Positions 13,620 to 29,921 of a stretch of 64,000 nt of DNA are shown here, piece after piece. This DNA is from Cohaesibacter marisflavi. Lineage in GTDB: Bacteria; Pseudomonadota; Alphaproteobacteria; Rhizobiales; Cohaesibacteraceae. Under the pieces are notes generated by a model. It saw only the letters and a program-made list of their open reading frames with translations, did no database searches and was not told where the DNA came from. The stretch spans positions 62,001 through 126,000 of the forward strand of contig NZ_FOVR01000001.1 of assembly GCF_900115225.1 (NCBI RefSeq), written 5' to 3'. The translations under genes and the position numbers were made by a program. Position 1 is the first letter of the stretch. Each line of letters begins with the position of its first letter.

Positions 13620-13683
13620 GGTATGTACCTGCAAACGGCGTTAGCCAGAATAGTCTGTAGTGTGAACACAGGTCTCGTGTCTG

Positions 13684-13728
13684 GCAAAAAAAGTGTAAAG
13701 GCCGCCCCGAACGAGGGAAGGGGCGGCC
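13684..13728 (-). terminator. Attenuator-like hairpin between dctP and dctQ
   Basis: GGCCGCCCC (13700-13708) pairs with GGGGCGGCC (13720-13728). On the minus strand the stem is followed by TTTACAC and a run of seven T (13690-13684). It starts 8 bp after the dctP stop. Such sites commonly let the binding protein be made in excess over the permeases. Confidence 0.85.
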
Positions 13729-13735
13729 CGTTTGA

Positions 13736-14716: not shown

Positions 14717-15157
14717 CGGTATGTAACCCTCATCGTTCGGTGTAGCGATTGCGTTATTCTTATATGGCAGAAATCGACTTGCAATTTCGGTATGCCACCT
14801 GTATGTCAAAACAAGGACGACCATACGATGGAAAATTAGGCAGCGCAAGAGGGTGCACAATATTTGAGCTGATTTTTTGGGCCGACCGTGAAAAAAGGTC
14901 CATTAGTCTAAGAATGAAACCAGCATGTTTCTGCGCTTTTGGCGCTAAACTGAGGCGTTTGAATTTGCTCTGTATATTGCCTAGCAAGAAGAAGGCCATT
15001 TTGTGGGGTCAAACTAAAATGGCCTGCAGTTGGCTCTCTGGCTTCGTCCGGTCAGGCGCGCCGTGCATTCAAAGGGCCGCATGCTTGCGTGCAATGCACA
15101 GGAAGCCATTGAAACAAATTCCCTTTTGGGGAGAGGCAAAACAAAAGGAAGCTTTGC
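14717..15157. other. Divergent control region of the TRAP and aminotransferase operons
   Basis: The 441 bp between dctP and the rightward aminotransferase hold the 31-bp shared element (14778-14808). There is also an inverted pair GTGCATT (15063-15069) and AATGCAC (15093-15099) about 60 bp before the aminotransferase start. No further gene is supported. Promoters for both directions must lie here, but no single -35/-10 pair stands out. Confidence 0.45.
14778..14808 (-). promoter_or_regulatory. Candidate operator, second copy of the 31-bp element
   Basis: Read on the minus strand this copy differs from 4761-4791 at only five of 31 positions. It begins with TTGACA one base earlier, which could serve as a -35 box for dctP. 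Both copies sit between divergent transcription units of the same catabolic region, which makes chance similarity unlikely. Confidence 0.6.
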
Positions 15158-16375
15158 ATGTCGTTGGAAACAAAATTCAGGATGCTCGGCACAGACAATG
15201 CTCCGGGACAGGAAGTCCGGCAGGGGGTGGATGGTCTTGGAGACCTGATGCGGGGAGACGCACTGGAAGGGCGACCCGTCGATTTTTCTCACGGGGATGT
15301 GGATGCCCACGAGCCCACACCGGGCTCTTTTGAGCTGTTCGCAGAGGGATTTGGCAAGGGCGCGGCGCAGGCCTACACCGAATATCGCGGTGATATTGGT
15401 ATCCGAGAGCAGGTCGCGACCGATTTGGCTGCCTTCACCGGTGCGCCGGTTGATGCTGCTGACGGCCTTATCATTACGCCGGGCACGCAAGGAGCGCTGT
15501 TTCTGGCCATGGCTGCTACGGTTGGCCGCGGCGACAAGGTTGCCATCGTGCAGCCGGACTATTTTGCCAACCGCAAGCTGGTTCAGTTCTTCGATGGAGA
15601 AATGATGCCGGTGCAGCTGCATTATGCCAAGGCAGAAGAGGGCACTGCAGGGCTGGATCTCGGTGAACTGGAAGAGGCGTTCAAGGCAGGGGCCAAGCTG
15701 TTCCTCTTTTCTAACCCGAACAACCCGGCTGGTGTCGTCTATTCAAAGGAAGAGATTGCAAGCATTGCCGCATTGGCTGAGCGCTATGGTGCAACGGTGA
15801 TTGTCGACCAGCTCTATTCACGCTTGCGCTACAGCAATGTCGCCTACACCCATTTGCGCGCCGAGCCGATTGATCCGGAAAATGTCATCACCATCATGGG
15901 GCCATCCAAGACCGAATCCCTTTCCGGTTTCCGCCTTGGGGTTGCTTATGGCTCAAGCAAAATCATCACGCGTATGGAGAAGCTTCAGGCGATCGTCAGC
16001 CTGCGGGCTGCTGGCTACAGTCAGGCCATCTTGCGTGGCTGGTTCCATGAGCCCGCCGGCTGGATGGATGACCGTATCGCCCAGCATGAAGCTATCCGTG
16101 ACGATTTGCTCAAGCTTTTCCGCGCCATAGAAGGCGTTAGCGCCCGTACGCCACAGGCTGGCAGCTACCTGTTCCCTGCGTTGCCAGATCTGTCTGTCTC
16201 TCCTGCGGATTTCGTGAAAATCCTGCGGGTTCAGGCAGGCGTCGTCGTCACACCCGGCACCGAATTCAGCCCCCATACGGCCAACAGCATCCGCCTTAAC
16301 TTTTCTCAGGATCACGCTGCTTCAGTTGCCGCGGTTGAACGTCTGGCAACGCTCGTAGAAAGGTATCGCACATGA
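15158..16375 (+). CDS. Class I/II aminotransferase (PLP-dependent)
   Basis: The 405-residue protein has the fold-type I layout: YTEYRGDIGIREQVATDLA, FSNPNNPAGVVYS with the cofactor Asn, DQLYSRLRY and the PLP lysine Lys251 in GPSKTESLSGFRLG. The C-terminal SIRLNFSQ carries the arginine that binds the substrate carboxylate. AAGGA precedes the ATG. It overlaps the RidA gene by 4 bp. Transcribed away from the TRAP operon, it probably deaminates the imported amino compound or a breakdown product. Confidence 0.87.
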   Translation: MSLETKFRMLGTDNAPGQEVRQGVDGLGDLMRGDALEGRPVDFSHGDVDAHEPTPGSFELFAEGFGKGAAQAYTEYRGDIGIREQVATDLAAFTGAPVDAADGLIITPGTQGALFLAMAATVGRGDKVAIVQPDYFANRKLVQFFDGEMMPVQLHYAKAEEGTAGLDLGELEEAFKAGAKLFLFSNPNNPAGVVYSKEEIASIAALAERYGATVIVDQLYSRLRYSNVAYTHLRAEPIDPENVITIMGPSKTESLSGFRLGVAYGSSKIITRMEKLQAIVSLRAAGYSQAILRGWFHEPAGWMDDRIAQHEAIRDDLLKLFRAIEGVSARTPQAGSYLFPALPDLSVSPADFVKILRVQAGVVVTPGTEFSPHTANSIRLNFSQDHAASVAAVERLATLVERYRT

Positions 16376-16906: not shown

Positions 16907-17345
16907 GGGGGCTTCACTGCGTCAGGCTGAGTCTGAACAGGCTTGAATATACTATCCGGCTTTGATCAAAAATTAGCCATCGCTTCGACCGAATTTTATC
17001 ATGCGAAAGTCTATGGATCTTTCAATTTGTTTGTAAGCAATTGATAATGTTGAATTAATATTCATTTTTGCGTCCGGCGCGGAGCGCGAGAAAACCGATG
17101 GATATTTGATCTTGAAAAGACGAATGCATCAAATCATAGTCATGATGCATCATAATTCCAATTGAATATATCGCAGCAAAAAGACCATCGCCCCGACCAA
17201 ACCCTCCAGACACGTCCATTCGGGCATGCAATTAACGCATTCGCGGACATCCACATTGGATGATGTACCGAGCGGGATCTCCCCTCAGAAGCCTATCGGT
17301 CCCTTCGTACGATCAGTCGACTAAAGAATATCAGGAATCTGCATC
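16907..17345 (+). other. Long leader/control region before the class III aminotransferase
   Basis: About 440 bp, AT-rich in its first half, with no supported gene. Its main content is the promoter with twin ATGCAT palindromes at 17112-17155, described separately. That leaves roughly 190 bp of untranslated leader before the ATG at 17346. I see no known riboswitch in the leader. Confidence 0.5.
17112..17155 (+). promoter_or_regulatory. Promoter with two ATGCAT palindromes 21 bp apart (operon side)
   Basis: TTGAAA (17112-17117), a 17-bp spacer and CATAGT (17135-17140) form a plausible promoter. One palindrome, GAATGCATCA (17122-17131), lies in the spacer. A perfect one, ATGATGCATCAT (17142-17153), covers the expected start point. 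The centres (17126.5 and 17147.5) are 21 bp apart, two helical turns. The same arrangement recurs at 23231-23274, in front of a GntR regulator gene. Confidence 0.68.
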
Positions 17346-18695
17346 ATGAGCATTACGCCCAATTCAGTTGAAGCACGCGATATCGCCTACCACATGCACC
17401 CAGCCGTTAATTTGCGCAAGTTCGAAGAAAAGGGCGGCCTCGTCATTGAAAGCGGCGATGGCGTTTATGTCTACGACAACACCGGCAAACGCTATATCGA
17501 AGGGCTGGCCGGTCTTTGGTCTGTCGCTGTTGGCTTTGGTGAAAAGCGGCTGGTTGAAGCGGCCGCCGCTCAGCTGCAAAAGCTGCCTTACTATCACTCC
17601 TTCAACTACAAAACCAACGGTCCGTCGGTTGATCTGGCAGAGCTGCTCATCAGCATCGCGCCGGTTCCTATGTCCAAGGTGCATTTCACCTCGTCGGGGT
17701 CAGAGGCCAACGATCTCGTGGCCAAGATGGTCTGGTATCGCTCCAACGCATTGGGCAAGCCGGAGAAGAAAAAGATCATCGGACGCATCAAGGGCTATCA
17801 CGGCGTGACGATTGCTGCGGGCTCCATCACCGGCATTCCGGCAAACCACACAAGCTTCGACTTGCCGCTTGATCGCATGGTCCATACATCCTGCCCGTCC
17901 TTCCCCCATTTCGGTGAAGACGGCGAGAGCGAAGAGGCCTTCACCGCTCGCATGCTGAAGGATCTGGAAGACCTGATTGTCAAGGAAGGGCCGGAAACCA
18001 TCGCTGCCTTCTGGGGCGAGCCGGTCATGGGCGCAGGTGGCGTGCTCACACCGCCAAAGGGCTATTGGGAAGGCGTTCAGGTCATCCTGAAAAAATATGA
18101 TATTCTGCTGGTAGCCGACGAGGTGATCTGTGGCTTTGGCCGTACCGGCAAGATGTTCGCCTGCGAAACCTATGACATCAAACCCGATGTGCTGGTCATT
18201 TCCAAACAGCTGTCATCATCCTACATGCCTCTGTCGGCCATCATGATGAATGACAATTTCTACCAGCCGATTGCCGATGAATCCGACAAGATCGGTGTAT
18301 TCGCCCATGGTTTCACAGCCTCGGGGCATCCGGTGGCGACCGCCGTTGGCCTTGAGAATGTAAAAATCATCATCGAGCGCGATCTGGTTGGTAATGCGGC
18401 CCGCCTCGAAAAGACTTTCCTTGATGGCCTTGCAAAACTGGCCGAGCATCCGCTCGTGGATTCCTCTCGCGGCATCGGCCTCATCGGGGCACTTGAGCTG
18501 ACCCCTTGGGAGCAGGAAGGGGCCGGAGCGGCAGCACTGGCTGTGGCAGAAGCCATTCAGGAAGAAGGCTGCATCATCCGCAACATTGGCGAAGCCATCT
18601 GCTTCTGCCCACCACTGATCATCACCGCAGAGCAAATTGAAGAAATGTTCGCAATCGTCCTGCGTGCGCTGAACAAGGTTGCCGAGACGCGTTAA
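17346..18695 (+). CDS. Class III aminotransferase (omega-amino acid/polyamine:pyruvate type)
   Basis: The 449-residue protein is full length for class III PLP enzymes. It has GLAGLWSVAVGFG near residue 54, FTSSGSEANDLVAKMV, the cofactor-stacking ADEVICGFGRTG and the PLP lysine Lys287 in ISKQLSSSYMPLSA. Relatives pass the terminal amino group of putrescine, taurine, beta-alanine or GABA to pyruvate. It is the first gene of an operon continuing into a polyamine-type ABC transporter, so it probably acts on the imported amine. Downstream (25224) lies a second class III enzyme of a different branch, so the two are not duplicates. Confidence 0.88.
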   Translation: MSITPNSVEARDIAYHMHPAVNLRKFEEKGGLVIESGDGVYVYDNTGKRYIEGLAGLWSVAVGFGEKRLVEAAAAQLQKLPYYHSFNYKTNGPSVDLAELLISIAPVPMSKVHFTSSGSEANDLVAKMVWYRSNALGKPEKKKIIGRIKGYHGVTIAAGSITGIPANHTSFDLPLDRMVHTSCPSFPHFGEDGESEEAFTARMLKDLEDLIVKEGPETIAAFWGEPVMGAGGVLTPPKGYWEGVQVILKKYDILLVADEVICGFGRTGKMFACETYDIKPDVLVISKQLSSSYMPLSAIMMNDNFYQPIADESDKIGVFAHGFTASGHPVATAVGLENVKIIIERDLVGNAARLEKTFLDGLAKLAEHPLVDSSRGIGLIGALELTPWEQEGAGAAALAVAEAIQEEGCIIRNIGEAICFCPPLIITAEQIEEMFAIVLRALNKVAETR

Positions 18696-18789
18696 GCGCC
18701 TCTTCGGCAGCCCAGGATTTCACCCTTAAAGATAGATCGGGACAACCCGGCGTTTTTTAAAGCAATCAACCTACCGGAGAAACAAAATC

Positions 18790-19827
18790 ATGAAAAAATG
18801 GGCACTATTGGCGTCTGTTCTTGCTCTTGGCGCCATGTCAAGCGCGTCTCAGGCCCGCGACCTGACCATCACAAGCTGGGGCGGTAGCTACCAGACTGCG
18901 CAACAGGATATCTATTTCAAACCATTCTCTGAAAAGGTCGGCAAGCCGGTTCTGGATGAAAGCTGGGATGGTGGCTATGGCGTGCTTCAGGCCAAGGTAA
19001 AGGCCGGTGCTCCCAACTGGGATGCCGTGCAGGTAGAAGCCGAAGAGCTGGCCCTTGGCTGCGATGACGGTATCTTCGAAATGATCGACTGGGACAAGAT
19101 GGGGGGCGAAGATGCCTTCATGCCCGCCGCTGTCAGTGATTGCGGCGTGGGCACCATCGTCTGGTCTCTGGCTCTGGCATATGATGGCAGCAAGCTCAGT
19201 GATGGCCCCAAAAACTGGGCTGACTTCTGGGATGTGAAGAAATTCCCGGGCAAACGTGCTCTGCGCAAAGGCGCCAAATACACCCTCGAGTTTGCTCTCT
19301 TGGCAGATGGTGTTCCGGCTGATGAGCTCTATGATGTTCTCTCCACCCCGGAAGGCATCGACCGGGCCTTTGCCAAGCTGGATGAGTTGAAACCGGATCT
19401 GGTCTGGTGGGAATCCGGCGCTCAGCCATTGCAATTCCTCGCGTCTGGCGAAGTGGCCATGGCCGCGTCCTACAATGGCCGTATCACCAGCATCAACAAG
19501 ACCGAAGGCAAGAATTTCAAGATCGTATGGCCTGGCTCCATCTATGCTGTCGACAGCTGGGTGATCCTCAAGGATGCCGAAAACAAGGAGCTTGCTCAGG
19601 ATTTCATCGCCTTTGCCAGCCAGCCGGAAAACATGGCAAAACTGCCTGAATATATCGCCTACGGGCTGACCAACAAGGAAGCCTCCAGCATGGTGCCGGA
19701 TGAGTATAAGGCCGATGTGCCGACCACGCCGGAAAACCTGGAAGAGGCGCTCTCGCTGAATATCGATTTCTGGATCGATAATTCCGAAGCCCTGAACCAG
19801 CGCTTTAACGCCTGGCTCGCCCAGTAA
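18790..19827 (+). CDS. ABC transporter periplasmic binding protein (PotD/PotF-like)
   Basis: The 345-residue protein begins with a signal peptide ending at SQARD. It is followed by TITSWGGSYQTAQQDIYF, a start typical of spermidine/putrescine-type binding proteins. ALAYDG and WWESGAQPLQFLASGEVAMA are further family blocks. It should capture a cationic or amino compound in the periplasm and deliver it to the permeases encoded 3' of it. Acidic residues that would hold an amine cannot be assigned by eye. CGGAG precedes the ATG. A 178-bp gap without a clear terminator leads to the ATPase gene. Confidence 0.9.
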   Translation: MKKWALLASVLALGAMSSASQARDLTITSWGGSYQTAQQDIYFKPFSEKVGKPVLDESWDGGYGVLQAKVKAGAPNWDAVQVEAEELALGCDDGIFEMIDWDKMGGEDAFMPAAVSDCGVGTIVWSLALAYDGSKLSDGPKNWADFWDVKKFPGKRALRKGAKYTLEFALLADGVPADELYDVLSTPEGIDRAFAKLDELKPDLVWWESGAQPLQFLASGEVAMAASYNGRITSINKTEGKNFKIVWPGSIYAVDSWVILKDAENKELAQDFIAFASQPENMAKLPEYIAYGLTNKEASSMVPDEYKADVPTTPENLEEALSLNIDFWIDNSEALNQRFNAWLAQ

Positions 19828-20005
19828 GGCAAAAGGCAAGCGCATGGAGCACAGCCCCGCTTCATGCGCTTCCTCCACGCATTCTCATCCGTTTGTTCAC
19901 GAGAGGCGAGAGCTTTCCCGAACGGGTGCGTTTGCCTTGTGATCTCAGGCGTAGGATAGACCGGCTTGTCCCGAGACTGTCTTGTCATACGTTGCAGGAA
20001 GAAAA

Positions 20006-21079
20006 ATGACCGAGCAGCCATATATTGAATTCCGAAAAGTCAGCAAAGTCTTCGGGTCCCTGACCGTTGTTGACCATCTCGATCTGACCATCAACAAGGG
20101 CGAGTTTGTCTCGCTCCTTGGTCCATCCGGATCGGGCAAGACAACCTTGCTCATGATGCTGGCTGGCTTTGAAGATCCCACCGCAGGGGATATTCTGCTC
20201 GGAGGCTCCGTGTTGAACCGGACTCCGCCTTACAAGCGCAATATGGGGGTTGTGTTCCAGAATTACGCCCTGTTCCCCCATCTGTCTGTGGCTGAGAATA
20301 TTGCCTTTCCGCTCAAGAGGAGAGGCGTCGCCAAGGCCGAGATTGCAGAGCGGGTCAATCGCGTGCTGGAGATGGTGCAGTTGCCCGACCAATCCGAAAA
20401 ACTCCCCAGCCAGCTGTCCGGTGGTCAGCAGCAGCGTGTGGCGCTGGCCCGTACACTGGTCTTTGAGCCCAATGTGGTCTTGATGGATGAGCCCCTTGGC
20501 GCACTCGACAAAAATCTGCGCGAGCAAATGCAATATGACATTCGCCGTCTGCACCGGGATCTGGGCCTGACGATCGTCTTCGTCACCCACGATCAGTCCG
20601 AAGCCTTGACGATGAGCGACCGCATTGCTGTGTTCAACCATGGCAAAATCGAACAGATCGGTACGCCACAGGATATCTATGACCGACCAAACACGCATTT
20701 TGTCGCCGAGTTTATTGGCGAAACCAATCTTATTCCCGTCAAATATCGCGAGGGAGACCATTCCCGCTGTTCGGTGACCACTAAAACGGGCAAGGATCTG
20801 GAAGTGACCAGCCCTGTGACCCTGTTCCGCGGAACAGAAGTGTTGCTCTCCTTGCGGCCGGAACATATCGAGCTGGGCGATAGTGCCGAAGGGCTGGAGA
20901 ATGCCATGCCCGCGCGCATCAGCGATGTGGTCTATCAGGGGGATCACCTGCGAGCCGATATCGAGGTGGATGGCACAAAGCTGGTGGCACGCCTTGGCCG
21001 TCATTTGCCGCCGCATGATCCCGGCGATGAGGTCTTCATCGGCTTTCGGCCTCAGAATGCACGGGTGATCCTGCCATGA
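20006..21079 (+). CDS. ABC transporter ATP-binding protein (PotA-like)
   Basis: I start at the ATG at 20006 behind GCAGGAAG, giving 357 residues. The nucleotide-binding domain has Walker A GPSGSGKTTLL, Q-loop FQNYALFPHLSV, signature LSGGQQQRVALART, Walker B VLMDEPLGALD and the His switch FVTHDQSEA. A TOBE-type domain follows from about residue 240. It powers import through the two permeases encoded immediately downstream; its stop overlaps the first permease start by 4 bp. Confidence 0.93.
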   Translation: MTEQPYIEFRKVSKVFGSLTVVDHLDLTINKGEFVSLLGPSGSGKTTLLMMLAGFEDPTAGDILLGGSVLNRTPPYKRNMGVVFQNYALFPHLSVAENIAFPLKRRGVAKAEIAERVNRVLEMVQLPDQSEKLPSQLSGGQQQRVALARTLVFEPNVVLMDEPLGALDKNLREQMQYDIRRLHRDLGLTIVFVTHDQSEALTMSDRIAVFNHGKIEQIGTPQDIYDRPNTHFVAEFIGETNLIPVKYREGDHSRCSVTTKTGKDLEVTSPVTLFRGTEVLLSLRPEHIELGDSAEGLENAMPARISDVVYQGDHLRADIEVDGTKLVARLGRHLPPHDPGDEVFIGFRPQNARVILP

Positions 21080-22251
21080 CTGCAAGACTAGGCCCACATC
21101 TCAAAGCCTCGGCGCTTGTGCTTCCGCTGGTGCTGTTTCTGGCCCTGTTTTTTGTCTGGCCGATCATCGCCATGCTCAAACAGTCCGTATCAGACCCCGT
21201 CGTTCACAACACCCTGAGCCAGACTAGCGCCATCGCCGCCCAATGGAACGGCAAGGCACCGGTTCCTGCTGCCCTGCAGGACGCACTTGTCGCCGACATT
21301 CGTGCTACGACGGATCGGCAGGAAATGGGCGCGGTCGTGCGGCGTCTCAACAGCGCCAAATCCGGCTTCAGAACGCTCATGCGCAAGACGCGCCGCGCCA
21401 TTCGAAAAACCGATGGCCCGATCAATCTGGGCGAAGTCGACAAGCGCTGGAACGAGGTGGCATGGTGGCACACCATTGCTCAGGCATCTTCGCCCTATAC
21501 TGACCGTTATCTGCTTGCAGCGCTTGATTATGGCCGAGATAAACATAATCAGATTGTGGCTTTGCCCGAAGATGCCTCGGCCAACAGAACCATTCTGGCG
21601 CGGACATTCGTCATCAGCCTGTCGGTGATGCTGTCCTGTCTGGCAATTGGGTTGCCGTTCGCCATGGTCATCGCTTCCACCTCTGGCTGGTTGCGCAACG
21701 TGTTGCTGGCCGCAGTGTTGCTGCCGCTCTGGACTTCGCTTCTGGTACGCACCACGGCGTGGTTCATCATTTTGCAGAATAACGGCCTTATCAACTCAGC
21801 CCTTCAGGCTCTGGGGATTACCGATCAGCCCATCCCGCTAATTTTCGAACGCACAGGTGTCATCATCGCCATGACGCATGTATTGCTGCCCTTCATGGTG
21901 CTACCGATCTATAGCGTGCTTTTGTCCATGCCGGGTAATCTCATGCAGGCGGCGTCTTCGCTAGGAGCACACCCGATCGTTGCCTTCCTGAAAGTCATGT
22001 TGCCTCTCTCGGCAAGGGGCATTGCCTCTGGCTCGCTGTTGGTTTTCATGTCTTCGATTGGCTACTACATCACACCGGCTCTCATCGGCGGCCCGTCCGA
22101 CCAGATGATTTCCTCCGTGATTGCCTTCTATGCAACGGAATCGGCGAACTGGGGAATGGCTGGCGCGCTCGGTCTGGTTCTGCTCTCGATCACCTTGTTG
22201 CTCTATGTCGTCTATGGACGTCTTTCGGCTGAAAAGAAGGGAGTCGCGTAA
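21076..22251 (+). CDS. ABC transporter permease (PotB-like) with large periplasmic insert
   Basis: The 391-residue protein is longer than the usual 280-300 of PotB. After the first membrane segment (about residues 11-35) there is a charged region of some 140 residues (about 40-180), probably periplasmic. The standard permease domain follows, with the ATPase-coupling loop SSLGAHPIVAFLKVMLPLS at about 296-314. Inserts of this kind occur in some alphaproteobacterial polyamine-type permeases and may shape binding-protein docking, though this is inference. The start overlaps the ATPase gene by 4 bp and the stop overlaps the next permease by 1 bp. Confidence 0.9.
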   Translation: MTARLGPHLKASALVLPLVLFLALFFVWPIIAMLKQSVSDPVVHNTLSQTSAIAAQWNGKAPVPAALQDALVADIRATTDRQEMGAVVRRLNSAKSGFRTLMRKTRRAIRKTDGPINLGEVDKRWNEVAWWHTIAQASSPYTDRYLLAALDYGRDKHNQIVALPEDASANRTILARTFVISLSVMLSCLAIGLPFAMVIASTSGWLRNVLLAAVLLPLWTSLLVRTTAWFIILQNNGLINSALQALGITDQPIPLIFERTGVIIAMTHVLLPFMVLPIYSVLLSMPGNLMQAASSLGAHPIVAFLKVMLPLSARGIASGSLLVFMSSIGYYITPALIGGPSDQMISSVIAFYATESANWGMAGALGLVLLSITLLLYVVYGRLSAEKKGVA

Positions 22252-23057
22252 TGTTCCCAACAGTCAAAAAAGCCTTTGGCATTCTTGTGATGCTGTTTCT
22301 GATTGCGCCACTGGCAGCCATTCTGCCGCTGGCCTTCACCTCTAGTGCGCTGCTCACTTATCCGGTGCCGGAATGGTCCATGCGCTGGTTGACTGAGCTG
22401 GTGACCGAGCCGGTCTGGCGCCGCTCCATCGCCAACAGTCTGATCATCGGTGGCGGCACGACTGTGCTTGCAACCACCCTTGGCACGTTGGCTGCGCTAG
22501 GGCTGCGGCGTTATTCTTCGCTGTTTGCAGGAGTGCTCAAGACCTTCTTCCTGCTGCCAATGGTGGTACCCGCTGTGGTGCTTGGTGTGGGTATGCAGGT
22601 CTTCTTCGTCCATGTGGGCATCGCCAACTCCTATCTGGGTGTGATCGTGGCGCATACGGTGATCGCTATGCCGTTCGTGTATGTCAGCGTGTCAGGCTCA
22701 TTGGCGGGTATCGACCCTCGCGTCGAGTTGGCCGCCGCCAGCCTTGGGGCGTCGCCCTCCACGGTTTTGCGCACGACGACCCTGCCGCTCAGCCTGTCCG
22801 GCATTCTGTCTGGGGCTGTGATGGCCTTTGCGACATCGCTTGATGAGGTGATCCTGACGCTCTTCATTGCAGGGCCTCACCAGCGCACGCTGGCCAGACA
22901 GATGTTCTCCACCATTCGCGAGAATGTGTCTCCGGCCATTGCAGCCGCGGCCTTTGTCTTCATTGTTGGCACCATTCTTGTTGCCTGTCTGATCATGCTG
23001 GTGCGTATGCGCACCGGTGGCGCGATGCAGAAGAGCGTCGGGCCTGGCATTTCATAA
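22251..23057 (+). CDS. ABC transporter permease (PotC-like)
   Basis: The 268-residue protein has six hydrophobic segments and the coupling motif ELAAASLGASPSTVLRTTTLPLS at about 163-185, as in PotC permeases. It completes a four-part importer with the binding protein, ATPase and first permease. The ATG overlaps the preceding TAA by one base (TAATG). A GC-rich stretch follows the stop before the promoter at 23231. Confidence 0.92.
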   Translation: MFPTVKKAFGILVMLFLIAPLAAILPLAFTSSALLTYPVPEWSMRWLTELVTEPVWRRSIANSLIIGGGTTVLATTLGTLAALGLRRYSSLFAGVLKTFFLLPMVVPAVVLGVGMQVFFVHVGIANSYLGVIVAHTVIAMPFVYVSVSGSLAGIDPRVELAAASLGASPSTVLRTTTLPLSLSGILSGAVMAFATSLDEVILTLFIAGPHQRTLARQMFSTIRENVSPAIAAAAFVFIVGTILVACLIMLVRMRTGGAMQKSVGPGIS

Positions 23058-23230
23058 GGGCTGTGGCGCCTCGGGGGGGCATGCCTCCGGCGCGCCACGC
23101 CCATTCTTTTTCGTGTTGAAAATCAACAAGGGCAGGGGCCCAACTGGTGCGTATGAAGCATCCGGTTCTTGCCTGAGAAAAGGGCGCCTTGGCGAGTCGC
23201 AGATCGGCGAGGGCGAGGAGACAATTTTGT

Positions 23231-23274
23231 TTGATTAAGATGATGCATCAAGATATGATTTCGATGCATCATAA
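23231..23274 (+). promoter_or_regulatory. Promoter with two ATGCAT palindromes 21 bp apart (regulator side)
   Basis: TTGATT (23231-23236), a 17-bp spacer and TATGAT (23254-23259) form a good promoter. TGATGCATCA (23241-23250) is a perfect palindrome inside the spacer and CGATGCATCAT (23262-23272) lies just after the -10. Centres are 21 bp apart. When aligned to 17112-17155, -35, -10 and both palindromes coincide at one constant offset. The site is 88 bp upstream of the GntR ATG, so autoregulation is likely. Confidence 0.72.
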
Positions 23275-23361
23275 ATGGAGCTCGCCATAGTTCGCGACGC
23301 AGATCGCCAAAAGTGCGGCCTCCATACTACGTGAAACACTGTAACTGGATTGAGTTTGTAT

Positions 23362-24024
23362 ATGCAATCGCAACAAGAAGGCAAAAAGCTCTCTGATATG
23401 GTCTATGACAGGCTGTGCGAGGCTCTGCTCAAAGGGCACTATCTTCCGGGCAAGCGCTTGAAAATCCGGGAGCTGGCTGAAGAGATGCAGACCAGCGTCA
23501 CGCCAGTGCGTGATGCCATTTTGCGTTTGCACTATGACGAGGCCGTTATCTACAGCTCGCCGCGCTCTATCCATGTCACGACTCTCAGCCGCGCGCGCTA
23601 TGAGGAAATCCGCAAAATTCGTTTGCCACTGGAAGTCATGAGCGCCAAGGCCGCCGCGCAATATGCCACCCTGTCCGATGTCACCGCGCTTGAAAGCCTG
23701 ATCGCCGAGAATGAAGAAGCCATGGCCGAAGGCGATGGCGTTCGCGGCGCGGCTCTCAATCAGCAATTCCATTTCAAGCTGGTCGAAATGTCAGCCATGC
23801 CGGTGCTTTATGGAGTGCTGCGCCGCCTTTGGCTGCAAACCAGTCCTCTGATTGCTCATGGCTATCTCGAAGCCGGACGGGCAATGATCGATCACCATTA
23901 CGAGGTTCTCGAAGCGGTGCGCAACAAGGATGTCGAGGCCGTCGCCATTGCTGTTGAGCGCGACCTGACTCTGGGAGGCGCTCCGCTGGTACGTATGCTC
24001 GACAAGGTGTCGGATGGCACATGA
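23362..24024 (+). CDS. GntR family transcriptional regulator, FCD subfamily
   Basis: The ATG at 23362 gives 220 residues; an in-frame TTG at 23350 adds four. The winged helix-turn-helix occupies about residues 8-70 (LAEEMQTSVTPVRDAILRL). The FCD domain has NQQFHFKLVEMSAM and DHHYEVLEAV, where metal and ligand residues usually lie. It stands between the ABC transporter operon and the kinase/lyase pair and follows a twin-palindrome promoter that also precedes the transporter operon. It is therefore the likely repressor of both. The inducer is unknown, perhaps the imported compound or a metabolite of it. Confidence 0.88.
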   Translation: MQSQQEGKKLSDMVYDRLCEALLKGHYLPGKRLKIRELAEEMQTSVTPVRDAILRLHYDEAVIYSSPRSIHVTTLSRARYEEIRKIRLPLEVMSAKAAAQYATLSDVTALESLIAENEEAMAEGDGVRGAALNQQFHFKLVEMSAMPVLYGVLRRLWLQTSPLIAHGYLEAGRAMIDHHYEVLEAVRNKDVEAVAIAVERDLTLGGAPLVRMLDKVSDGT

Positions 24025-24168
24025 TCAAGAGGCGCGTATCGGGGGTGAAATTTCTGCCACTCGAACCCGTTTCTATCCAAACAACTTACCCTTACTGGCA
24101 ATCCAACACCTGATGGCCATCATCACAGCGCTCTTTATAAAGACACAATAATTGGAGAAGACCGGCCA

Positions 24169-25224
24169 ATGACCACTGTAGACCCAGATATCGGATCGCT
24201 TCTGACGACGCCTCCACCCGCGATTTCACAGCAGGAGGCTTGCGCGATTGCCAAAACGACCTTCGGTCTCACCGGTAGCCTCAAGCAGTTGACCTCTGAG
24301 CGCGATGTCAATTTCCTGCTCCGCGCGGATGACGGCAAAGGTTATGTGCTCAAATTCACCAATGAGATGGAACCGGAAGAGCAAACCGATTTCCAGACCA
24401 AGGCTCTGCTGCATCTGGAAAAAACGGCGCCATCCCTGCGCGTGCCACGGGCCGTGCCGACGCTTTCGGGAGAGCTGTGGCAGGAGCTGGAAAACGGCTC
24501 CCGTGCGCGGCTTCTAAGCTATGTTGAAGGAAGCCTCAGCTCAACGCTTCCCAAATCGCCCAATCTGGCAATTGCGGTTGCCACTGCGGGTGCGAAACTG
24601 GTCAATGCCCTTAAAGAGTTCGCGCATCCCGGAGCTGATCACTATCTGATCTGGGACATCAAGAATGCCGGAACCCTGCGCTCCATGTTGCCCCTTATCG
24701 AAGAGGCAGAACAGCGGGGACTGGTCGAAACGGTGATTGATGCATTTGATGAAAGAATAGCGCCACGTCTTGATAACTTGCCATGGCAGGTCATTCACGG
24801 AGATCTCAATCCGCAAAATCTGGTGGCCGAAGATGAGACTGATCTGGAAATCGGCGTGCTGGATTTTGGCGACATGGTGCGTTCGCCCCGCATTTGCGAA
24901 CTGGCGATCGCTGCGGGCTATCAGCTCGACTTTTCCGATGTCGGAGCATCCCTCATACGGTTCCTTGCCCGCTGGCACAGCATTTGTCCTCTGACCCCTG
25001 CCGAGGTTGAGTTGTCTGCTGATTTTGTCGCAGCCCGCTTTGCCACTATCATCACGGTCGCCAATTGGCGTGCCCAACGTTATCCGGAAAACAGGGCCTA
25101 TATCACGCGCAATCTGGCGTTGGCTTCCAATGGGATCAGGCATCTGACCAATCTGGATACAAATGGGCTCTATGAGGCTCTGGCTGATAGAGCCGAGGCC
25201 AAACCACACAAGGAGATGTCCTGA
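24169..25224 (+). CDS. Phosphotransferase resembling hydroxylysine kinase (APH fold)
   Basis: The 351-residue protein belongs to the aminoglycoside phosphotransferase/choline kinase fold. The catalytic loop VIHGDLNPQNLV begins near residue 208 and the metal-binding LDFGDMVRSPRICELAI near 230. Beyond the shared fold, several blocks resemble human hydroxylysine kinase from memory: SERDVNFLL, YLIWDIKNA, SICPLTPAEVE and RYPENRAYI. It should phosphorylate a hydroxyl group on a small amino compound using ATP or GTP. GGAG precedes the ATG. The stop overlaps the start of a phospho-lyase-type class III enzyme by one base, so kinase and lyase are coupled. A homoserine-kinase-like role is a less likely alternative. 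Confidence 0.8.
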   Translation: MTTVDPDIGSLLTTPPPAISQQEACAIAKTTFGLTGSLKQLTSERDVNFLLRADDGKGYVLKFTNEMEPEEQTDFQTKALLHLEKTAPSLRVPRAVPTLSGELWQELENGSRARLLSYVEGSLSSTLPKSPNLAIAVATAGAKLVNALKEFAHPGADHYLIWDIKNAGTLRSMLPLIEEAEQRGLVETVIDAFDERIAPRLDNLPWQVIHGDLNPQNLVAEDETDLEIGVLDFGDMVRSPRICELAIAAGYQLDFSDVGASLIRFLARWHSICPLTPAEVELSADFVAARFATIITVANWRAQRYPENRAYITRNLALASNGIRHLTNLDTNGLYEALADRAEAKPHKEMS

Positions 25225-26528
25225 TGCCGCAAGACCAGTCCATGGCGAATGCCTTCGTGCCGGGGCAGGCAATCCTGTCTGCGGGCGATGAAGCTCTTTT
25301 GCAACGCCGCACCGACACGCTTGGGCCAGCCTATCGCCTGTTTTATGAAGAGCCCTTCCATCCGGTGCGTGGGGAAGGGGTGTGGCTCTATGATGAAGAG
25401 GGCACAGCCTATCTTGACGCCTACAACAATGTTGCCTGTGTGGGCCATTGCCATCCGCGCGTGGTGGAAGCCATGGCCAGGCAGGCCTCTATGCTAACCA
25501 CCCACACACGTTATTTGCAGAATAACATTGTCGATTTTGCAGAAGATTTTCTGGCGAGTTTTCCCGATCCCCTGTCTCACATCATGTTCACTTGCACAGG
25601 CTCGGAAGCCAACGACCTGGCACTGCGCATTGCCCGGGTAAAAACCGGCGGTACCGGCGTCATCGTGACGGAGAATGCCTACCACGGCGTCACCATCGCA
25701 TTGGCAGCCATGTCTCCTTCTCTGGGCGCAGGCGCCCCCAAAGATGAAAATGTCTTCACCATTCCCGCCCCGACCGGTCAGCATGGCGAGCAGGAAGGCG
25801 AAATCATGCGTGCCAACGTGGAAAAGGCGCTTGCCACCATGGCAGAACGAGGCATCAAACCCGCAGCTCTCTATGTCGACACCATCTTTTCTTCCGACGG
25901 CATTTTCAGCCACCCCAAGGGTTTCCTCAAACCCGCGGTTGACGCCTTTCGGGCAGCCGGTGGGCTGTTTGTGGCCGACGAGGTGCAGCCCGGTTTTGCC
26001 CGCACGGGCGAGGAAATGTGGGGCTTCATTCGGCATGGTGTAGTGCCGGATATGGTCTCCATGGGCAAGCCAATGGGCAATGGCTATCCTGTTGCAGCAT
26101 TGGTCGTGCGGCCTGATGTCGTGGCCGAGTTTGGTGAACGCACCCGCTATTTCAACACGTTCGGCGGCAACACCACGGCCATTGCCACGGCGCAGGCCGT
26201 TTGGGATATCATTCGTGATGAAGGTCTGCTGAATAAGACGCTAGAAACCGGTAGCGCCTTCCGTGCCGATCTGGAAAGTCTTGCCAGAGAAGGGGATGTC
26301 ATTTGCGATATCCGCGGCAGTGGCTTGTTTATCGGTGTGCAGATTGCCGGAGATGATCCAAGGGGGCGGACTGCCCGCCTCGTCAATGCGCTGAAGAAAA
26401 AGCGCATTCTCATCAGTGCGTCCGGCCCGGGCGGTGATGTGCTCAAAATCCGCCCGCCGCTGGCATTTGGTGCCGATGCGCTTGACTTCTTCATGAGCGG
26501 ATTGCGAGAGGCCATCAAGGATATCTAG
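25224..26528 (+). CDS. Class III PLP enzyme of the phospho-lyase type (AGXT2L1/AGXT2L2-like)
   Basis: The 434-residue protein resembles the branch that includes human ethanolamine-phosphate and phosphohydroxylysine phospho-lyases more than ordinary transaminases. Diagnostic-looking blocks are LDAYNNVACVGHCHPRVVE, TRYLQNNIVDFAE and FTCTGSEANDLALRIAR. The cofactor site shows ADEVQPGFARTG and Lys282 in SMGKPMGNGYPVAAL. Such enzymes remove phosphate and ammonia from a phosphorylated amino alcohol, leaving an aldehyde or semialdehyde. Its start overlaps the kinase stop (TGATG), so kinase product likely feeds straight into it. In some bacteria the two are fused. Transaminase activity cannot be excluded from sequence alone. 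Confidence 0.82.
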   Translation: MPQDQSMANAFVPGQAILSAGDEALLQRRTDTLGPAYRLFYEEPFHPVRGEGVWLYDEEGTAYLDAYNNVACVGHCHPRVVEAMARQASMLTTHTRYLQNNIVDFAEDFLASFPDPLSHIMFTCTGSEANDLALRIARVKTGGTGVIVTENAYHGVTIALAAMSPSLGAGAPKDENVFTIPAPTGQHGEQEGEIMRANVEKALATMAERGIKPAALYVDTIFSSDGIFSHPKGFLKPAVDAFRAAGGLFVADEVQPGFARTGEEMWGFIRHGVVPDMVSMGKPMGNGYPVAALVVRPDVVAEFGERTRYFNTFGGNTTAIATAQAVWDIIRDEGLLNKTLETGSAFRADLESLAREGDVICDIRGSGLFIGVQIAGDDPRGRTARLVNALKKKRILISASGPGGDVLKIRPPLAFGADALDFFMSGLREAIKDI

Positions 26529-26609
26529 CCTGAGGGGCGGTTTGCCCGTTCCCATTTCAATAAAAACGATAGTGCACAAGTACGCAGCTTCCATTGGAAA
26601 GAACCAGAT

Positions 26610-27356
26610 ATGAGTTCGAACGAGAGAAAAACCCTTTTGATTACCGGCGCCAGCCGTGGCATCGGTCACGCCACTGTAAAGCGCTTCTCTGATGCAGGGT
26701 GGCGGGTGCTCAGTTGTTCCCGACAGCCCTTTGATGAAAAATGCCCCTGGCCGATGGGCAAGGAGAACCACATTCAGGTGGACCTCAGTGACCTGGCAAG
26801 CATCGGCAGGGCAATCGGCGTCGTCAAGGAACGCCTGGAATCGGAAGGCGGTAGGCTGCATGCGCTGATCAACAATGCGGCCATCAGCCCTAAGGACGAA
26901 AATGGCCAGCGGCTCGATAGTCTCCGGACTCCGCCGCACTTGTGGCACACCGTTTTCACGGTCAATTTTGTTGCGCCCATCATGCTCGCAAACGGCTTGA
27001 TCGAAGAGCTGCGTGCCGCGAAGGGCTCCATCGTCAATGTTACGTCCATTGCGGGCATGCGCGTGCATCCCTTTGCTGGCACGGCCTACGCAACGTCAAA
27101 GGCGGCGCTGTCTACATTGACCCGCGAAATGGCCGCCGATTTTGGTCCGCACGGTATTCGGGTGAACGCCATCGCACCGGGAGAAATCGACACCTCGATC
27201 CTGTCACCGGGCACCGAGAAGATGGTCGAGACCATTCCGCTGCGGCGTCTGGGCGAGCCTTCCGAGGTGGCTGAAACCGTCTTCTATCTGTGCTCGGATG
27301 CCAGCTCCTATGTTTCCGGCACCGAAATTCACGTCAATGGCGGCCAGCATGTCTGA
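26610..27356 (+). CDS. Short-chain dehydrogenase/reductase
   Basis: The 248-residue protein is a classical SDR: cofactor motif TGASRGIGHA near residue 11, NNAAI near 88, then a Ser-Tyr-Lys set in VTSIAGM and AYATSKAAL. The closing SSYVSGTEIHVNGGQHV is typical. It probably oxidises or reduces a hydroxyl or carbonyl group of a pathway intermediate with NAD(P). It lies 81 bp after the phospho-lyase-type gene in the same direction, behind GGAAAG, and may belong to the same transcript. Substrate unknown. Confidence 0.86.
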   Translation: MSSNERKTLLITGASRGIGHATVKRFSDAGWRVLSCSRQPFDEKCPWPMGKENHIQVDLSDLASIGRAIGVVKERLESEGGRLHALINNAAISPKDENGQRLDSLRTPPHLWHTVFTVNFVAPIMLANGLIEELRAAKGSIVNVTSIAGMRVHPFAGTAYATSKAALSTLTREMAADFGPHGIRVNAIAPGEIDTSILSPGTEKMVETIPLRRLGEPSEVAETVFYLCSDASSYVSGTEIHVNGGQHV

Positions 27357-27753
27357 ATGAGCCATCCCTAATGTGCAGATTGTGTGCCCCGGCTTTCGCT
27401 ACATGTTGCGAGGGTGGGGCACAGCTCCTTTCGGGCTGTTAATCAGGGGAAGGAACCGGGCCATGGCTGGAGAAGCACGGTCTTTTCGGTTATCGTTGGA
27501 CAGATCCTCCCGGATTCAGTCTTATCTTCCTGATCGGAGTGTTCTCCTGCCTCATCGGGGCGAGCCCTGAGACCATGTGTCTTGAGCCCAGTCAGGTTGG
27601 CCTGCGCAAAGGCAAACCGCACACTTTTCGCCATGACGAACAAAGCTTCGCCGCGATGCCCGAAGGAGGCAGGACAGCACTCTGCTTGGAAGATAAAAAG
27701 CAAGGGACGTGGCGGCCTCGCCGCTCAATATGTGCCCAAAAGAGAGTACTGTG
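27357..27753 (+). other. Intergenic region with a long-armed hairpin
   Basis: TGTGCCCC (27383-27390) pairs with GGGGCACA (27416-27423). Inner bases (TTTCGC with GCGAGG) extend the stem. No T run follows, so it may be an RNA structure rather than a strong terminator. The other 330 bp before the dehydrogenase start hold short open frames without recognisable similarity. I see no gene and no known riboswitch. Confidence 0.45.
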
Positions 27754-28743
27754 ATGAACAAGAATAAACTGGTTGTTGTCGGCGTAGGCCATGTTGGCTC
27801 TTACGTGCTGGCAGACGCCATGAAGACAGGCCTGTTCGCCGAAATCGGCGTGATCGACATTCTGGAAAATGTTGCCTATGGCGAAGCGCTGGATCAGGCA
27901 CAGGCAACGGCCCTGACCTATATGAACAATGTGGATGTCAAGGCTGGCGGCTATGAACAATGCGCTGATGCTGACGTGATTGTTGTGGCTGCTGGTCCGA
28001 GCGTTATTCCAGATCCGGATAACCCCAAGGCCGAACCTGATCGCACGCTTCTGACCAAGACCAACTGCGAGGTCATTCGCGAGGTGATGACGGGCATCAC
28101 CAAATATACCAAGGACGCCATCGTCATCCTGATCACCAATCCGCTCGACACCATGGTGTATATTGCGGAAAACGAATTCGGATATCCCAAGGGCCGCGTT
28201 TTCGGAACCGGCACAATGCTGGATTCAGCCCGCTTGCGGAAGCTGATCGCCGACACCTATCAGGTCGATCCCAAGTCGATTTCCGGCTACATGATGGGTG
28301 AACATGGCAGCACTGCTTTTCCGGTGCTGAGCCATGTGACTGTGGGCGGCATTCCGTTTGATGCCATTGATGACTATCTGGCGCCCTCCAGCAATATTCA
28401 AGATCCGGATGTCGTGAAGACAAGCATTGTCTCAGCCGCCTATGAAGTGCTCAACGGCAAGGGCTGGACCAATGCTGGAGTTGCCCAATCTGCCATCACT
28501 ATGGCAAAGGCTGTTTTGCTGGATGAGCGCAGCATCTATCCCGCATCAACCACGTTGCGCGGCCAATATGGTCATGATGGCGACGTGGCCCTCAGCATGC
28601 CGTGTGTCATCGGTCGGGAAGGGATCATCAAGCAATTGCCTGTTGATCTGAATGAATGGGAAAAGCAAAAGCTGCAGGAAACAATCGCTTTCATTCAGGC
28701 CACAATGGTGGATGCCAAAACGGGGCCGGACAAAGCGAAATAA
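27754..28743 (+). CDS. L-lactate/L-2-hydroxyacid dehydrogenase family protein
   Basis: Starting at the ATG at 27754 behind AGAGAG gives 329 residues. The NAD-binding motif is GVGHVGSYV, followed by ITNPLDTMVYI and the catalytic histidine in MGEHGST. Typical LDHs have a TSR or QRP-type substrate loop; the loop here around DPDNPKAEPDRTLLTKT is longer. It resembles L-2-hydroxyisocaproate dehydrogenases, so the substrate may be a larger 2-oxo acid rather than pyruvate. It follows the second catabolic region and might handle the 2-oxo acid left after deamination; this link is inference. Confidence 0.83.
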   Translation: MNKNKLVVVGVGHVGSYVLADAMKTGLFAEIGVIDILENVAYGEALDQAQATALTYMNNVDVKAGGYEQCADADVIVVAAGPSVIPDPDNPKAEPDRTLLTKTNCEVIREVMTGITKYTKDAIVILITNPLDTMVYIAENEFGYPKGRVFGTGTMLDSARLRKLIADTYQVDPKSISGYMMGEHGSTAFPVLSHVTVGGIPFDAIDDYLAPSSNIQDPDVVKTSIVSAAYEVLNGKGWTNAGVAQSAITMAKAVLLDERSIYPASTTLRGQYGHDGDVALSMPCVIGREGIIKQLPVDLNEWEKQKLQETIAFIQATMVDAKTGPDKAK

Positions 28744-28881: not shown

Positions 28882-29493
28882 TTAGCTGCTTGTGGCCTTG
28901 GAGGTGATATCCGTTGTATGCTCGGCCAGTTCCTTGCGCCAACGTCCAGCCTCAAAGGCTTTGCGCGCCAGATGCGCCTTGCGGCGATGCTGATAGGACC
29001 GGGCGGCGTGTCTGGTCAGATAATAAAAGATCAGCGCCACCGCGATGCCAACTGGCAAGGCACCCACGGCCATGATCTTTATTGTTGGCAGAATAGCCGA
29101 GAGCGACTGCGACAAGAGCCCATGCTGCAGTGCATGAATCTTGTGATGCATGATCGGCTGTCCCAGTATCATACAACCCGTGGAATAGGTCGCGCTCCAG
29201 ATGAACGGAAATGTCAGCGGGTTGCCGACCGCAGTGCCAACTGCAGCAGCGAGCAGGTTTCCGCCGATCAAGAAGGCGATGGCCCACGCGATGAGAAAAT
29301 GAAATCCCAGAAAAGGTGTGAAAGAGGTGAAGACACCAGCCGCAACCCCGGCCGCGATGGCATAGGGAGACCCTGTCAAGCGCAAGACCCGCTTGATATA
29401 ATAGACGCCAGACCGTTTCCAGCTACGACGCGGCCACAGCAATACGCGCATGCGCTCGGCAAACTTGGGCTTGTTCTTTCGACCAAAAATCAC
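28882..29493 (-). CDS. DUF2062 domain membrane protein
   Basis: The 203-residue protein starts at a GTG (29493). A basic N-terminal region is followed by SPYAIAAGVAAGVFTSFTPF, then AVGTAVGNPLTFPFIW, the two blocks that define DUF2062. There are about three to four membrane segments, and a basic, Arg/Lys-rich C-terminal tail probably in the cytosol. The function of the family is not established; members often sit near envelope or glycosyltransferase genes. It is convergent with the dehydrogenase gene. Confidence 0.84.
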   Translation of the reverse strand: MIFGRKNKPKFAERMRVLLWPRRSWKRSGVYYIKRVLRLTGSPYAIAAGVAAGVFTSFTPFLGFHFLIAWAIAFLIGGNLLAAAVGTAVGNPLTFPFIWSATYSTGCMILGQPIMHHKIHALQHGLLSQSLSAILPTIKIMAVGALPVGIAVALIFYYLTRHAARSYQHRRKAHLARKAFEAGRWRKELAEHTTDITSKATSS

Positions 29494-29921
29494 GGTTTCC
29501 AGTCTCTTTCTTCTTTTTGTAAGACCGATGTGCCATCGAGCACCTTGCGCTGGTCCACCTTAAGCCAGCTCGCCCGCAACATAGCACATAAAGTCACTAT
29601 TTTCTTTTAAAGACAAACACTAATTTCCAAGTGTTTCTCACCTCAAAGAAGGGGCATCCTTTATCCGAAGATATAAGATGTCTTATCGCGCCTGAAAAGG
29701 GCCATTTCGTGGCCGGTTTCCAGTGATTTTTCCAGTTAAGGGTTTAGGCCTCTCTTGGAATTGTTGCAATCCATTTTAAATAGGAGAAAGGCAAATGGTG
29801 AATAAATTTGTATCACTGAGATTATTTCTAGCCTAAAGGGCAGCTTAGCGGATAATCAGAGTGGATCTTTTCGGCATTTGCTATAAAGAACACGAGAAAG
29901 ATCAAAACCGGGTGTAAGATT
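29494..29921. other. Intergenic region, nothing recognised
   Basis: These 428 bp separate the leftward DUF2062 gene from the rightward phosphatidyltransferase gene and so contain promoters for both. I find no open frame with family similarity, no clear inverted repeat and no riboswitch. Confidence 0.4.

What the first reader, a model, noticed from the sequence alone, without database searches (positions are those of the whole stretch)
17346..28743. Candidate import-phosphorylate-eliminate pathway for a hydroxylated amino compound
A PotABCD-type importer and a class III aminotransferase are followed by a GntR regulator, a hydroxylysine-kinase-like enzyme and, overlapping it by one base, a class III enzyme of the ethanolamine-phosphate/phosphohydroxylysine phospho-lyase type. 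An SDR and an LDH-like enzyme follow. The kinase plus lyase pair matches the animal hydroxylysine breakdown route (known for AGPHD1 and AGXT2L2), here joined to a dedicated transporter and regulator. A bacterial operon for hydroxylysine or a similar amino alcohol would be new to me.
Basis: partly seen in the sequence, partly recalled or inferred. Interest (0 to 1): 0.78.

Follow-up and report, generated by a model that had tools for sequence, protein, structure and literature searches.

The report
Operon degrading a hydroxylated amino acid
A bacterial gene set that appears to import a hydroxylated amino compound, add phosphate to it and then strip off phosphate and ammonia; the relatives suggest the compound resembles hydroxylated GABA more than hydroxylysine.

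Summary
Kinase and class III enzyme form a real, widespread pair: 77 of 80 loci found through the lyase carry the kinase. The class III enzyme falls in the phospho-lyase clade, apart from the genome's other class III enzymes. The complete set recurs in Agrobacterium larrymoorei, and importer, GntR, SDR, kinase and lyase recur with shuffled order in other proteobacteria. A palindrome, TGATGCATCA, lies before AT-I and before GntR and recurs in matching gaps elsewhere, so this looks like one regulon. The LDH is not part of it.

The substrate is inferred. The binding protein resembles GABA-binding proteins and keeps their key Arg and Asp. In two relatives a succinate-semialdehyde-dehydrogenase-type gene follows the lyase directly; GABA transaminase lies near others. 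I favour 4-amino-3-hydroxybutyrate (GABOB) or a close C4 relative such as 2-hydroxyputrescine, giving succinate semialdehyde. Hydroxylysine fits better at Klebsiella and Mesorhizobium loci with lysine-type importers, whose lyases lie in another subclade. The chemistry is known; I did not find this regulon and substrate described in the (capped) searches made.

The parts
17143..17152 (.). palindrome TGATGCATCA, candidate GntR operator before AT-I
   Evidence: exact in the 4 genus members with the block
17346..18695 (+). AT-I: class III aminotransferase (PRK06105 subfamily, 731 bits, cut-off 517)
   Evidence: next to the module in A. larrymoorei (79%), and near kinase and lyase in Thioclava, Neorhizobium and others
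18790..19827 (+). SBP resembling GABA-binding proteins; W30, R231, D255, Y291 match the GABA site of Pf622
19982..21079 (+). ABC ATPase (potA subfamily)
21076..22251 (+). ABC permease 1
22251..23057 (+). ABC permease 2
23241..23250 (.). palindrome TGATGCATCA before GntR
23262..23271 (.). second copy with one mismatch (CGATGCATCA); exact in two of the four genus members
23350..24024 (+). GntR/FCD regulator
   Evidence: 26 of 80 lyase loci carry a relative, including all 12 with the exact palindrome
24169..25224 (+). APH-fold kinase; HGDLNPQN at residue 210, DFGD at 232
25224..26528 (+). class III PLP phospho-lyase-like enzyme; GKPMGNG at residue 281
26610..27356 (+). SDR; recurs in the module elsewhere, role unknown

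Best explanation
A GntR-controlled catabolic regulon for a beta-hydroxylated omega-amino compound of the C4/GABA family, most likely 4-amino-3-hydroxybutyrate (GABOB). The ABC importer brings the zwitterion in; the APH-type kinase phosphorylates the hydroxyl next to the aminomethyl carbon; the PLP enzyme removes phosphate and ammonia, which from phospho-GABOB would give succinate semialdehyde, to be oxidised to succinate by a succinate-semialdehyde dehydrogenase; this genome has two over the family cut-off, both outside the window. AT-I may transaminate GABA or another omega-amine entering by the same importer; the SDR may interconvert hydroxyl and keto (or the two stereo-) forms before phosphorylation. 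Shown: genes, conserved co-location, shared palindrome, family membership by sequence. Inferred: every reaction, the regulator-operator link and the substrate. The general scheme (import, phosphorylate, eliminate) I hold at about 0.85; the C4 identity at about 0.5.
For: 77 of 80 lyase loci have the kinase, 74 of these 77 directly before it on the same strand; all 44 loci put into one search have both. Lyase in the clade of 5g4i and 6tor, 100/100. Importer with GntR, SDR, kinase and lyase in S. meliloti pSymA, Shinella, A. larrymoorei, Rahnella, Rouxiella; parts of it in P. shirazica, Microvirga, Labrys. Palindrome: 17 exact copies in 12 of 80 loci, none inside a gene hit by a probe, all 12 with the GntR that 26 of 80 have (Fisher p 1.6e-7, kinship not corrected); the 29 other palindromes from the same half-site letters reach at most 4. 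SBP: Arg and Asp of the GABA site kept in 14 of 17 SBP rows at kinase-lyase loci. SSADH-type gene overlapping the lyase by 4 bases in Bradyrhizobium iriomotense L211 (TIGR01780 715, cut-off 646), and 17 bases after it in R. leguminosarum L195, which has the same importer (SBP 73%) and the palindrome. GABA transaminase and SSADH over cut-off in Rahnella sikkimica, GABA transaminase in Microvirga L012; aminobutyraldehyde dehydrogenase over cut-off before the pair in Pseudomonas L228.
Against: No activity was measured. SSADH genes of at least 45% identity lie near the lyase in only 5 of 80 loci, two on the other strand, three just under the family cut-off and one (L228) further under; their density (5 in 0.86 Mb) is not clearly above that further out (1 in 0.51 Mb). 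The L195 gene is under its family cut-off, and four other aldehyde dehydrogenases near lyases (L191, L193, L224, L255) fit no family over cut-off. No SSADH lies in the window unit. The nine importer-only stretches fetched keep the same Arg and Asp, so the SBP type is not tied to this pathway; four pocket positions differ from Pf622; one solved SBP named spermidine/putrescine-binding (8jv1, 178 bits) is as near as the GABA binders. Lyases next to GABA-like importers are not one clade. AT-I (84%) occurs in three genus members without kinase or this SBP. Other loci pair the enzymes with peptide-type importers or histone-deacetylase-family (acetylpolyamine-amidohydrolase-like) genes (16 of 80), so the substrate varies across the family.
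Confidence: 0.5

Rival explanations
1. 2-Hydroxyputrescine or a conjugate of it is the substrate: phosphorylated and eliminated to 4-aminobutanal, or first converted by AT-I towards the C4 amino acid.
For: Aminobutyraldehyde dehydrogenase (PRK13473, 750 bits, cut-off 615) directly before the pair in L228; histone-deacetylase-family (acetylpolyamine-amidohydrolase-like) genes in 16 of 80 loci; putrescine and polyamine transaminases among the solved relatives of AT-I; ATPase over the potA cut-off; 8jv1, named spermidine/putrescine-binding, among the nearest solved SBPs.
Against: The window SBP keeps the Arg and Asp of GABA binders and is far below the PotD/PotF cut-offs; SBPs predicted as polyamine binders can be GABA-specific, as PA0222 (passages of PMC6829864); no amidohydrolase in the window unit.
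Confidence: 0.17
2. 5-Hydroxylysine pathway as in animals: 5-phosphohydroxylysine to 2-aminoadipate semialdehyde.
For: Same chemistry and enzyme kinds as the animal route (recalled; Veiga-da-Cunha 2012 seen only as a citation); one plasmid record annotates the pair as hydroxylysine kinase and ethanolamine-phosphate phospho-lyase.
Against: Importer is not of the lysine type; the three lyases beside lysine/arginine/ornithine-type importers (two Klebsiella, one Mesorhizobium) lie in another subclade of 9 rows, 99/97; dehydrogenases directly after the lyase in relatives are SSADH-type; in P. fluorescens 5-hydroxylysine is reported to go by lysine routes (passage in PMC12930750 citing Friede and Henderson 1976).
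Confidence: 0.13
3. Amino alcohol pathway (ethanolamine, 1-amino-2-propanol, aminoacetone), as proposed for the Rhodococcus/Mycobacterium microcompartment: a dehydrogenase makes the amino alcohol, kinase and phospho-lyase give an aldehyde (the phospho-lyase reading of that cluster is recalled; PMC6620236 itself proposes a transaminase route).
Against: GABA-like SBP with its Arg; no aldehyde dehydrogenase in the unit; the dehydrogenases directly after the lyase in relatives are SSADH-type.
Confidence: 0.12
4. Another beta-hydroxy amino acid such as isoserine, or a plant- or opine-type conjugate.
For: SBP relatives include mannopine and agropine binders.
Against: No neighbour specific to malonate semialdehyde or opine chemistry was recognised among the genes examined.
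Confidence: 0.08

Closest known systems
Ethanolamine-phosphate / 5-phosphohydroxylysine phospho-lyases (ETNPPL 6tor, Arthrobacter A1RDF1 5g4i)
   Same: Sequence clade and class III PLP scaffold.
   Different: P0008 lies in the free-standing bacterial branch; human ETNPPL groups with the fused bacterial forms. Substrate inferred to carry a carboxylate.
Microcompartment aminopropanol cluster (Aut/RMM; kinase 6ef6)
   Same: GntR, dehydrogenase, APH kinase and class-III-type enzyme in one cluster; kinase fold.
   Different: ABC importer with a GABA-like SBP; no microcompartment gene seen among the ORFs scanned; different dehydrogenase after the lyase in relatives.
Animal hydroxylysine route (HYKK plus PHYKPL)
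   Same: Order of chemistry (recalled).
   Different: Importer and neighbours point to a C4 compound; no HYKK sequence was compared here.
GABA importers with Atu4243 / Pf622 / PA0222-type SBPs
   Same: SBP family and the residues for amine and carboxylate.
   Different: Four pocket positions differ; linked to a kinase and lyase.

Membership tests
Phospho-lyase subfamily of class III PLP enzymes | Sequence nearer to solved phospho-lyases than to transaminases | tested here: met
   320 and 283 bits to 5g4i and 6tor, next 152; clade 100/100 apart from 8 rows, 7 distinct proteins, of other class III enzymes of the genome
Phospho-lyase subfamily of class III PLP enzymes | Catalytic lysine motif present | tested here: met
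   K282 invariant in 20 of 20 aligned lyases; that it is the PLP lysine is by family knowledge
Phospho-lyase subfamily of class III PLP enzymes | Releases phosphate and ammonia | not testable with these tools
   needs an assay
Hydroxylysine kinase (HYKK) | Phosphorylates 5-hydroxylysine | not testable with these tools
   needs an assay; no HYKK sequence was compared
Homoserine kinase (ThrB2) | Score over curated cut-off | tested here: not met
APH/choline-kinase-like kinases | APH domain and intact catalytic loop | tested here: met
   PF01636 87.6 bits, cut-off 23.2; D212, N217, D232 invariant in 41 of 41; model pLDDT 93
PotABCD polyamine importer | SBP over PotD/PotF cut-off | tested here: not met
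   48 and 40 bits against 582 and 636
PotABCD polyamine importer | ATPase over potA cut-off | tested here: met
   387 bits against 356
GABA-type SBP | Arg and Asp contacts of the GABA site | tested here: met
   R231 and D255
GABA-type SBP | Whole GABA pocket conserved | tested here: not met
   T13 to Y34, F100 to I123, F102 to W125, W202 to Y228
Aut/RMM microcompartment cluster | Shell protein genes | tested here: inconclusive
   none among the ORFs scanned, but ORFs under 150 aa were not listed

The most novel reading that the evidence does not exclude
A bacterial degradation route for beta-hydroxy-GABA (GABOB): import, 3-O-phosphorylation and PLP-dependent removal of phosphate and ammonia to succinate semialdehyde, run by a GntR regulon with operator TGATGCATCA spread over alpha-, beta- and gammaproteobacteria, and one of several substrate versions of a modular kinase plus phospho-lyase cassette whose importer tells the substrate.
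Probability: 0.4. Interest if true: 0.7.

Novelty: new variant of a known kind. Interest (0 to 1): 0.55.

Why it matters
The kinase plus phospho-lyase pair is common in proteobacteria (77 of 80 lyase loci; kinase matches in 313 plasmid records, and in 36 of 150 related genomes) under names such as phosphotransferase and aminotransferase. Tying it to importers and to one conserved operator turns a vague pair into testable substrate predictions, including a GABA-related nutrient route in plant-associated bacteria and a probable hydroxylysine version in others.

Tried and rejected
LDH as a pathway member: rejected. Gap of 352 bases, no palindrome in it, no LDH relative near any of the 80 lyase loci, and LDH present at 88-92% in four genus members (G001, G004, G007, G011) without a kinase match at E 1e-20. 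SDR paralogue neighbourhoods (aroC, fabI, dnaJ, pdxH) gave no substrate hint. Ten ORFs around four importer-only loci gave no informative neighbour. Kinase tree: the outgroup row OUT_L107 was picked wrongly (the longest ORF of that locus, not its kinase), so no rooting or outgroup statement is taken from it; its bootstrap had not settled and 12 of 43 inner branches are starred. SSADH density near versus far from the lyase is not a clear enrichment. The first genome-contig scan, with the kinase alone, found no relative. The AtGABA-T paper (PMC13224807, passages) was looked at and not used. Papers: no paper of the library holds both hydroxyputrescine and phospho-lyase. The other listings (capped at 7 of 7, 20 of 4,406, 15 of 19,731, 10 of 12, 12 of 15 and 10 of 35 papers) showed no title or abstract start describing this bacterial route; most were seen only as listings, and the library lacks most subscription journals. 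Veiga-da-Cunha 2012, Planamente 2012 and Mallette and Kimber 2018 are recalled or seen only as citations. The only solved relative of the SDR listed (E 1e-38) is 4x54, without a stated function.
Full report
Observation. ATPase and first permease overlap by 4 bases, the permeases by 1, kinase and lyase by 1; the gaps before GntR (292), before the kinase (144) and before LDH (352) may separate transcription units. Of 17 other genomes of the genus searched for the kinase at E 1e-20, 4 have it at 70-93% and the whole block with it, 7 have only distant matches in open frames of 1023-1098 residues, and 6 have none.

The class III enzyme. The best solved relatives are 5g4i (phospholyase, 320 bits) and 6tor (human ethanolamine-phosphate phospho-lyase, 283 bits); the next is at 152 bits. 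In a 55-row tree it groups with both and with the other pair members, 100/100, apart from 8 rows of other class III enzymes of the genome (P0001 and 7 loci, of which L007 is P0001 itself, so 7 distinct proteins, assumed transaminases). Fused bacterial forms group with the human enzyme (99/91); the free-standing enzymes, with 5g4i, form the other side. So by sequence it is not a plain transaminase; no activity was measured.

The pair. All 44 loci put into one search have kinase and lyase beside each other or fused; most were fetched by a kinase match, some by SBP or AT-I; L059, whose contig ends inside the lyase, and the duplicates L078 and L099 were left out. Of these 80, 77 have the kinase, 74 of the 77 directly before the lyase on the same strand; of the three without (L213, L226, L260) two are on contigs under 6 kb.

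The module. Importer (SBP 45-76% identical), GntR, SDR, kinase and lyase lie together, in changed order, in S. meliloti pSymA, Shinella and A. larrymoorei, and in Rahnella and Rouxiella with the ATPase a little apart; A. larrymoorei also has AT-I (79%) and so the complete set. P. shirazica and the Pseudomonas loci L248 and L261 have SBP, SDR, GntR, kinase and lyase; Microvirga L012, L212 and L216, Labrys L217 and L225, and G137 have importer, kinase and lyase. AT-I also adjoins in Neorhizobium L244 (79%, with SDR), Thioclava (71%), Microvirga L212 and L216 and Aureimonas L227 (55-56%). In the 80 loci: SBP of at least 45% in 16, AT-I of at least 45% in 11 (4 with such an SBP), SDR of at least 50% in 10 (7 with such an SBP), LDH in 0. 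AT-I also exists at 84% in three genus members (G001, G004, G007) with neither kinase nor this SBP at the limits used, so it is not tied to this pathway alone.

The operator. Comparing the gaps of the window showed one exact shared palindrome, TGATGCATCA, before AT-I and before GntR. The same word stands in the matching gaps of the four genus members, A. larrymoorei, two Rahnella, P. shirazica, two Azospirillum and the unnamed G102, and with one mismatch in S. meliloti, Shinella and Microvirga. It was not found exactly at many other kinase-lyase loci (for example G137, B. multivorans, Chelatococcus, Klebsiella, Mesorhizobium). In the 80 loci, fetched afterwards, it occurs 17 times in 12 loci, never inside a gene hit by a probe; all 12 have the GntR, which 26 of 80 have (Fisher p 1.6e-7, not corrected for kinship; L194 is the same species as a locus already seen); the 29 other palindromes made from the same half-site letters reach at most 4. 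In the own genome there are 17 exact copies; of the 15 elsewhere, 14 lie inside a longest open frame (two at its very edge, in L157 and L161) and one between convergent frames. On the two Azospirillum plasmids and those of A. larrymoorei and P. shirazica all exact copies are those of this locus (2, 2, 2 and 1), on the two Rahnella plasmids 3 of 5 and 3 of 4; S. meliloti pSymA has one exact copy, not at this locus. On the window sequence alone, 2 matches to a 12-base word with one mismatch are not rare (6 of 100 shuffles), so the case rests on conservation. That GntR binds it is inferred.

The substrate. The nearest solved SBPs are 4i1d (184 bits), GABA-binding 4eq7/4euo and 9d57/6dgv (179, 176 and 172 bits) and 8jv1, named spermidine/putrescine-binding (178 bits); PotD and PotF entries are at 34-61 bits. 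PMC12999171 (passages) lists the GABA site of Pf622 as W9, T13, F100, Y102 (F in the parent), W202, R205, D228, Y264, with D228 bonding the amine. By the alignment these are W30, Y34, I123, W125, Y228, R231, D255, Y291 here. Of 17 SBP rows at kinase-lyase loci, 14 keep the Arg and the Asp; the other three, less similar (30-36%: two of Bosea and a second one of P. shirazica), have Gly, Gly and Asn for the Asp. The nine importer-only stretches keep both too, so this speaks for the kind of ligand, probably a zwitterion like GABA in a changed pocket, and not for the pathway. Neighbours in relatives: in B. iriomotense L211 an SSADH over cut-off (715, 646) starts 4 bases inside the lyase end; in R. 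leguminosarum L195, with the same importer and the palindrome, an SSADH-type gene (PRK09406 532 bits, cut-off 730) starts 17 bases after the lyase; Rahnella sikkimica has GABA transaminase and SSADH over cut-off, Microvirga L012 a GABA transaminase over cut-off; L228 has an aminobutyraldehyde dehydrogenase over cut-off before the kinase and an SSADH-like gene under cut-off further on. Against this: the density of SSADH genes near the lyase is 5 in 0.86 Mb against 1 in 0.51 Mb further out, two of the five are on the other strand, four of the five are under cut-off, and four further aldehyde dehydrogenases near lyases fit no family over cut-off. The window's genome has two SSADH genes over cut-off, elsewhere. 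Phospho-GABOB would give succinate semialdehyde by the known chemistry of these enzymes; this step is inference. The lyases next to GABA-like importers are not one clade in the tree (30% of bootstrap trees make them so), so the importer type has moved between lyase lineages.

Other versions. Klebsiella plasmids and a Mesorhizobium plasmid carry the pair with importers annotated lysine/arginine/ornithine; their lyases lie, with six loci of other or unknown importers (Thioclava with its AT-I among them), in another subclade (99/97): hydroxylysine is more likely there. None of the 80 loci showed such an importer. Histone-deacetylase-family (acetylpolyamine-amidohydrolase-like) genes accompany 16 of 80 loci, which suggests hydroxylated polyamines. 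PMC6620236 (passages) describes a microcompartment cluster with GntR, aminopropanol dehydrogenase, aminotransferase and APH phosphotransferase. The cassette thus seems to be a general way to break down a beta-hydroxy amine.

Known facts on S. meliloti. PMC12542648 (passages) names SMa1755 an SBP, with a motif at pSymA 999179-999159, and SMa1761 an aminotransferase; the position fits the locus found here; that SMa1761 is the lyase is my inference.

Verdict. New variant of a known kind.

Noticed in passing
L085 and L106 (Klebsiella pneumoniae plasmids), L103 (Mesorhizobium plasmid): Kinase plus lyase with a GntR and an importer annotated lysine/arginine/ornithine: a better candidate for a bacterial hydroxylysine operon than the window.
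   Followed up: partly
L110-L117 and other loci with open frames of about 1000 residues: Fused kinase and lyase proteins (PRK06148-like); in the eight examined the lyase part groups with human ETNPPL and not with the free-standing bacterial enzymes.
   Followed up: partly
L191, L197, L199, L204-L206, L210, L215, L224, L231, L235, L240, L243, L247, L262, L265: Histone-deacetylase-family (acetylpolyamine-amidohydrolase-like) genes beside the pair, in nine of them with a peptide-type SBP: perhaps a route for acylated hydroxy-polyamines.
   Followed up: partly
L252 (Caballeronia pedi): Two kinase plus lyase pairs on opposite strands within about 11 kb, with an SSADH-like gene between them.
   Followed up: no
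window 11773-14860, minus strand, and 15158-16375, plus strand: A TRAP importer (DctM, DctQ, DctP) next to a class I/II aminotransferase just before the unit.
   Followed up: no
window 28882-29610: A minus-strand DUF2062 gene overlaps a plus-strand ORF without any Pfam match; the plus-strand ORF is probably not a gene.
   Followed up: partly
L084 (Pseudomonas shirazica plasmid): The locus, with palindrome, lies a few kb from a class 1 integron with annotated resistance genes.
   Followed up: no
own genome contig C19:465846-466586: A 78% paralogue of the SDR; SDRs of 76-79% occur in nine genus members without a closer one, so the window SDR looks like a recruited duplicate.
   Followed up: partly
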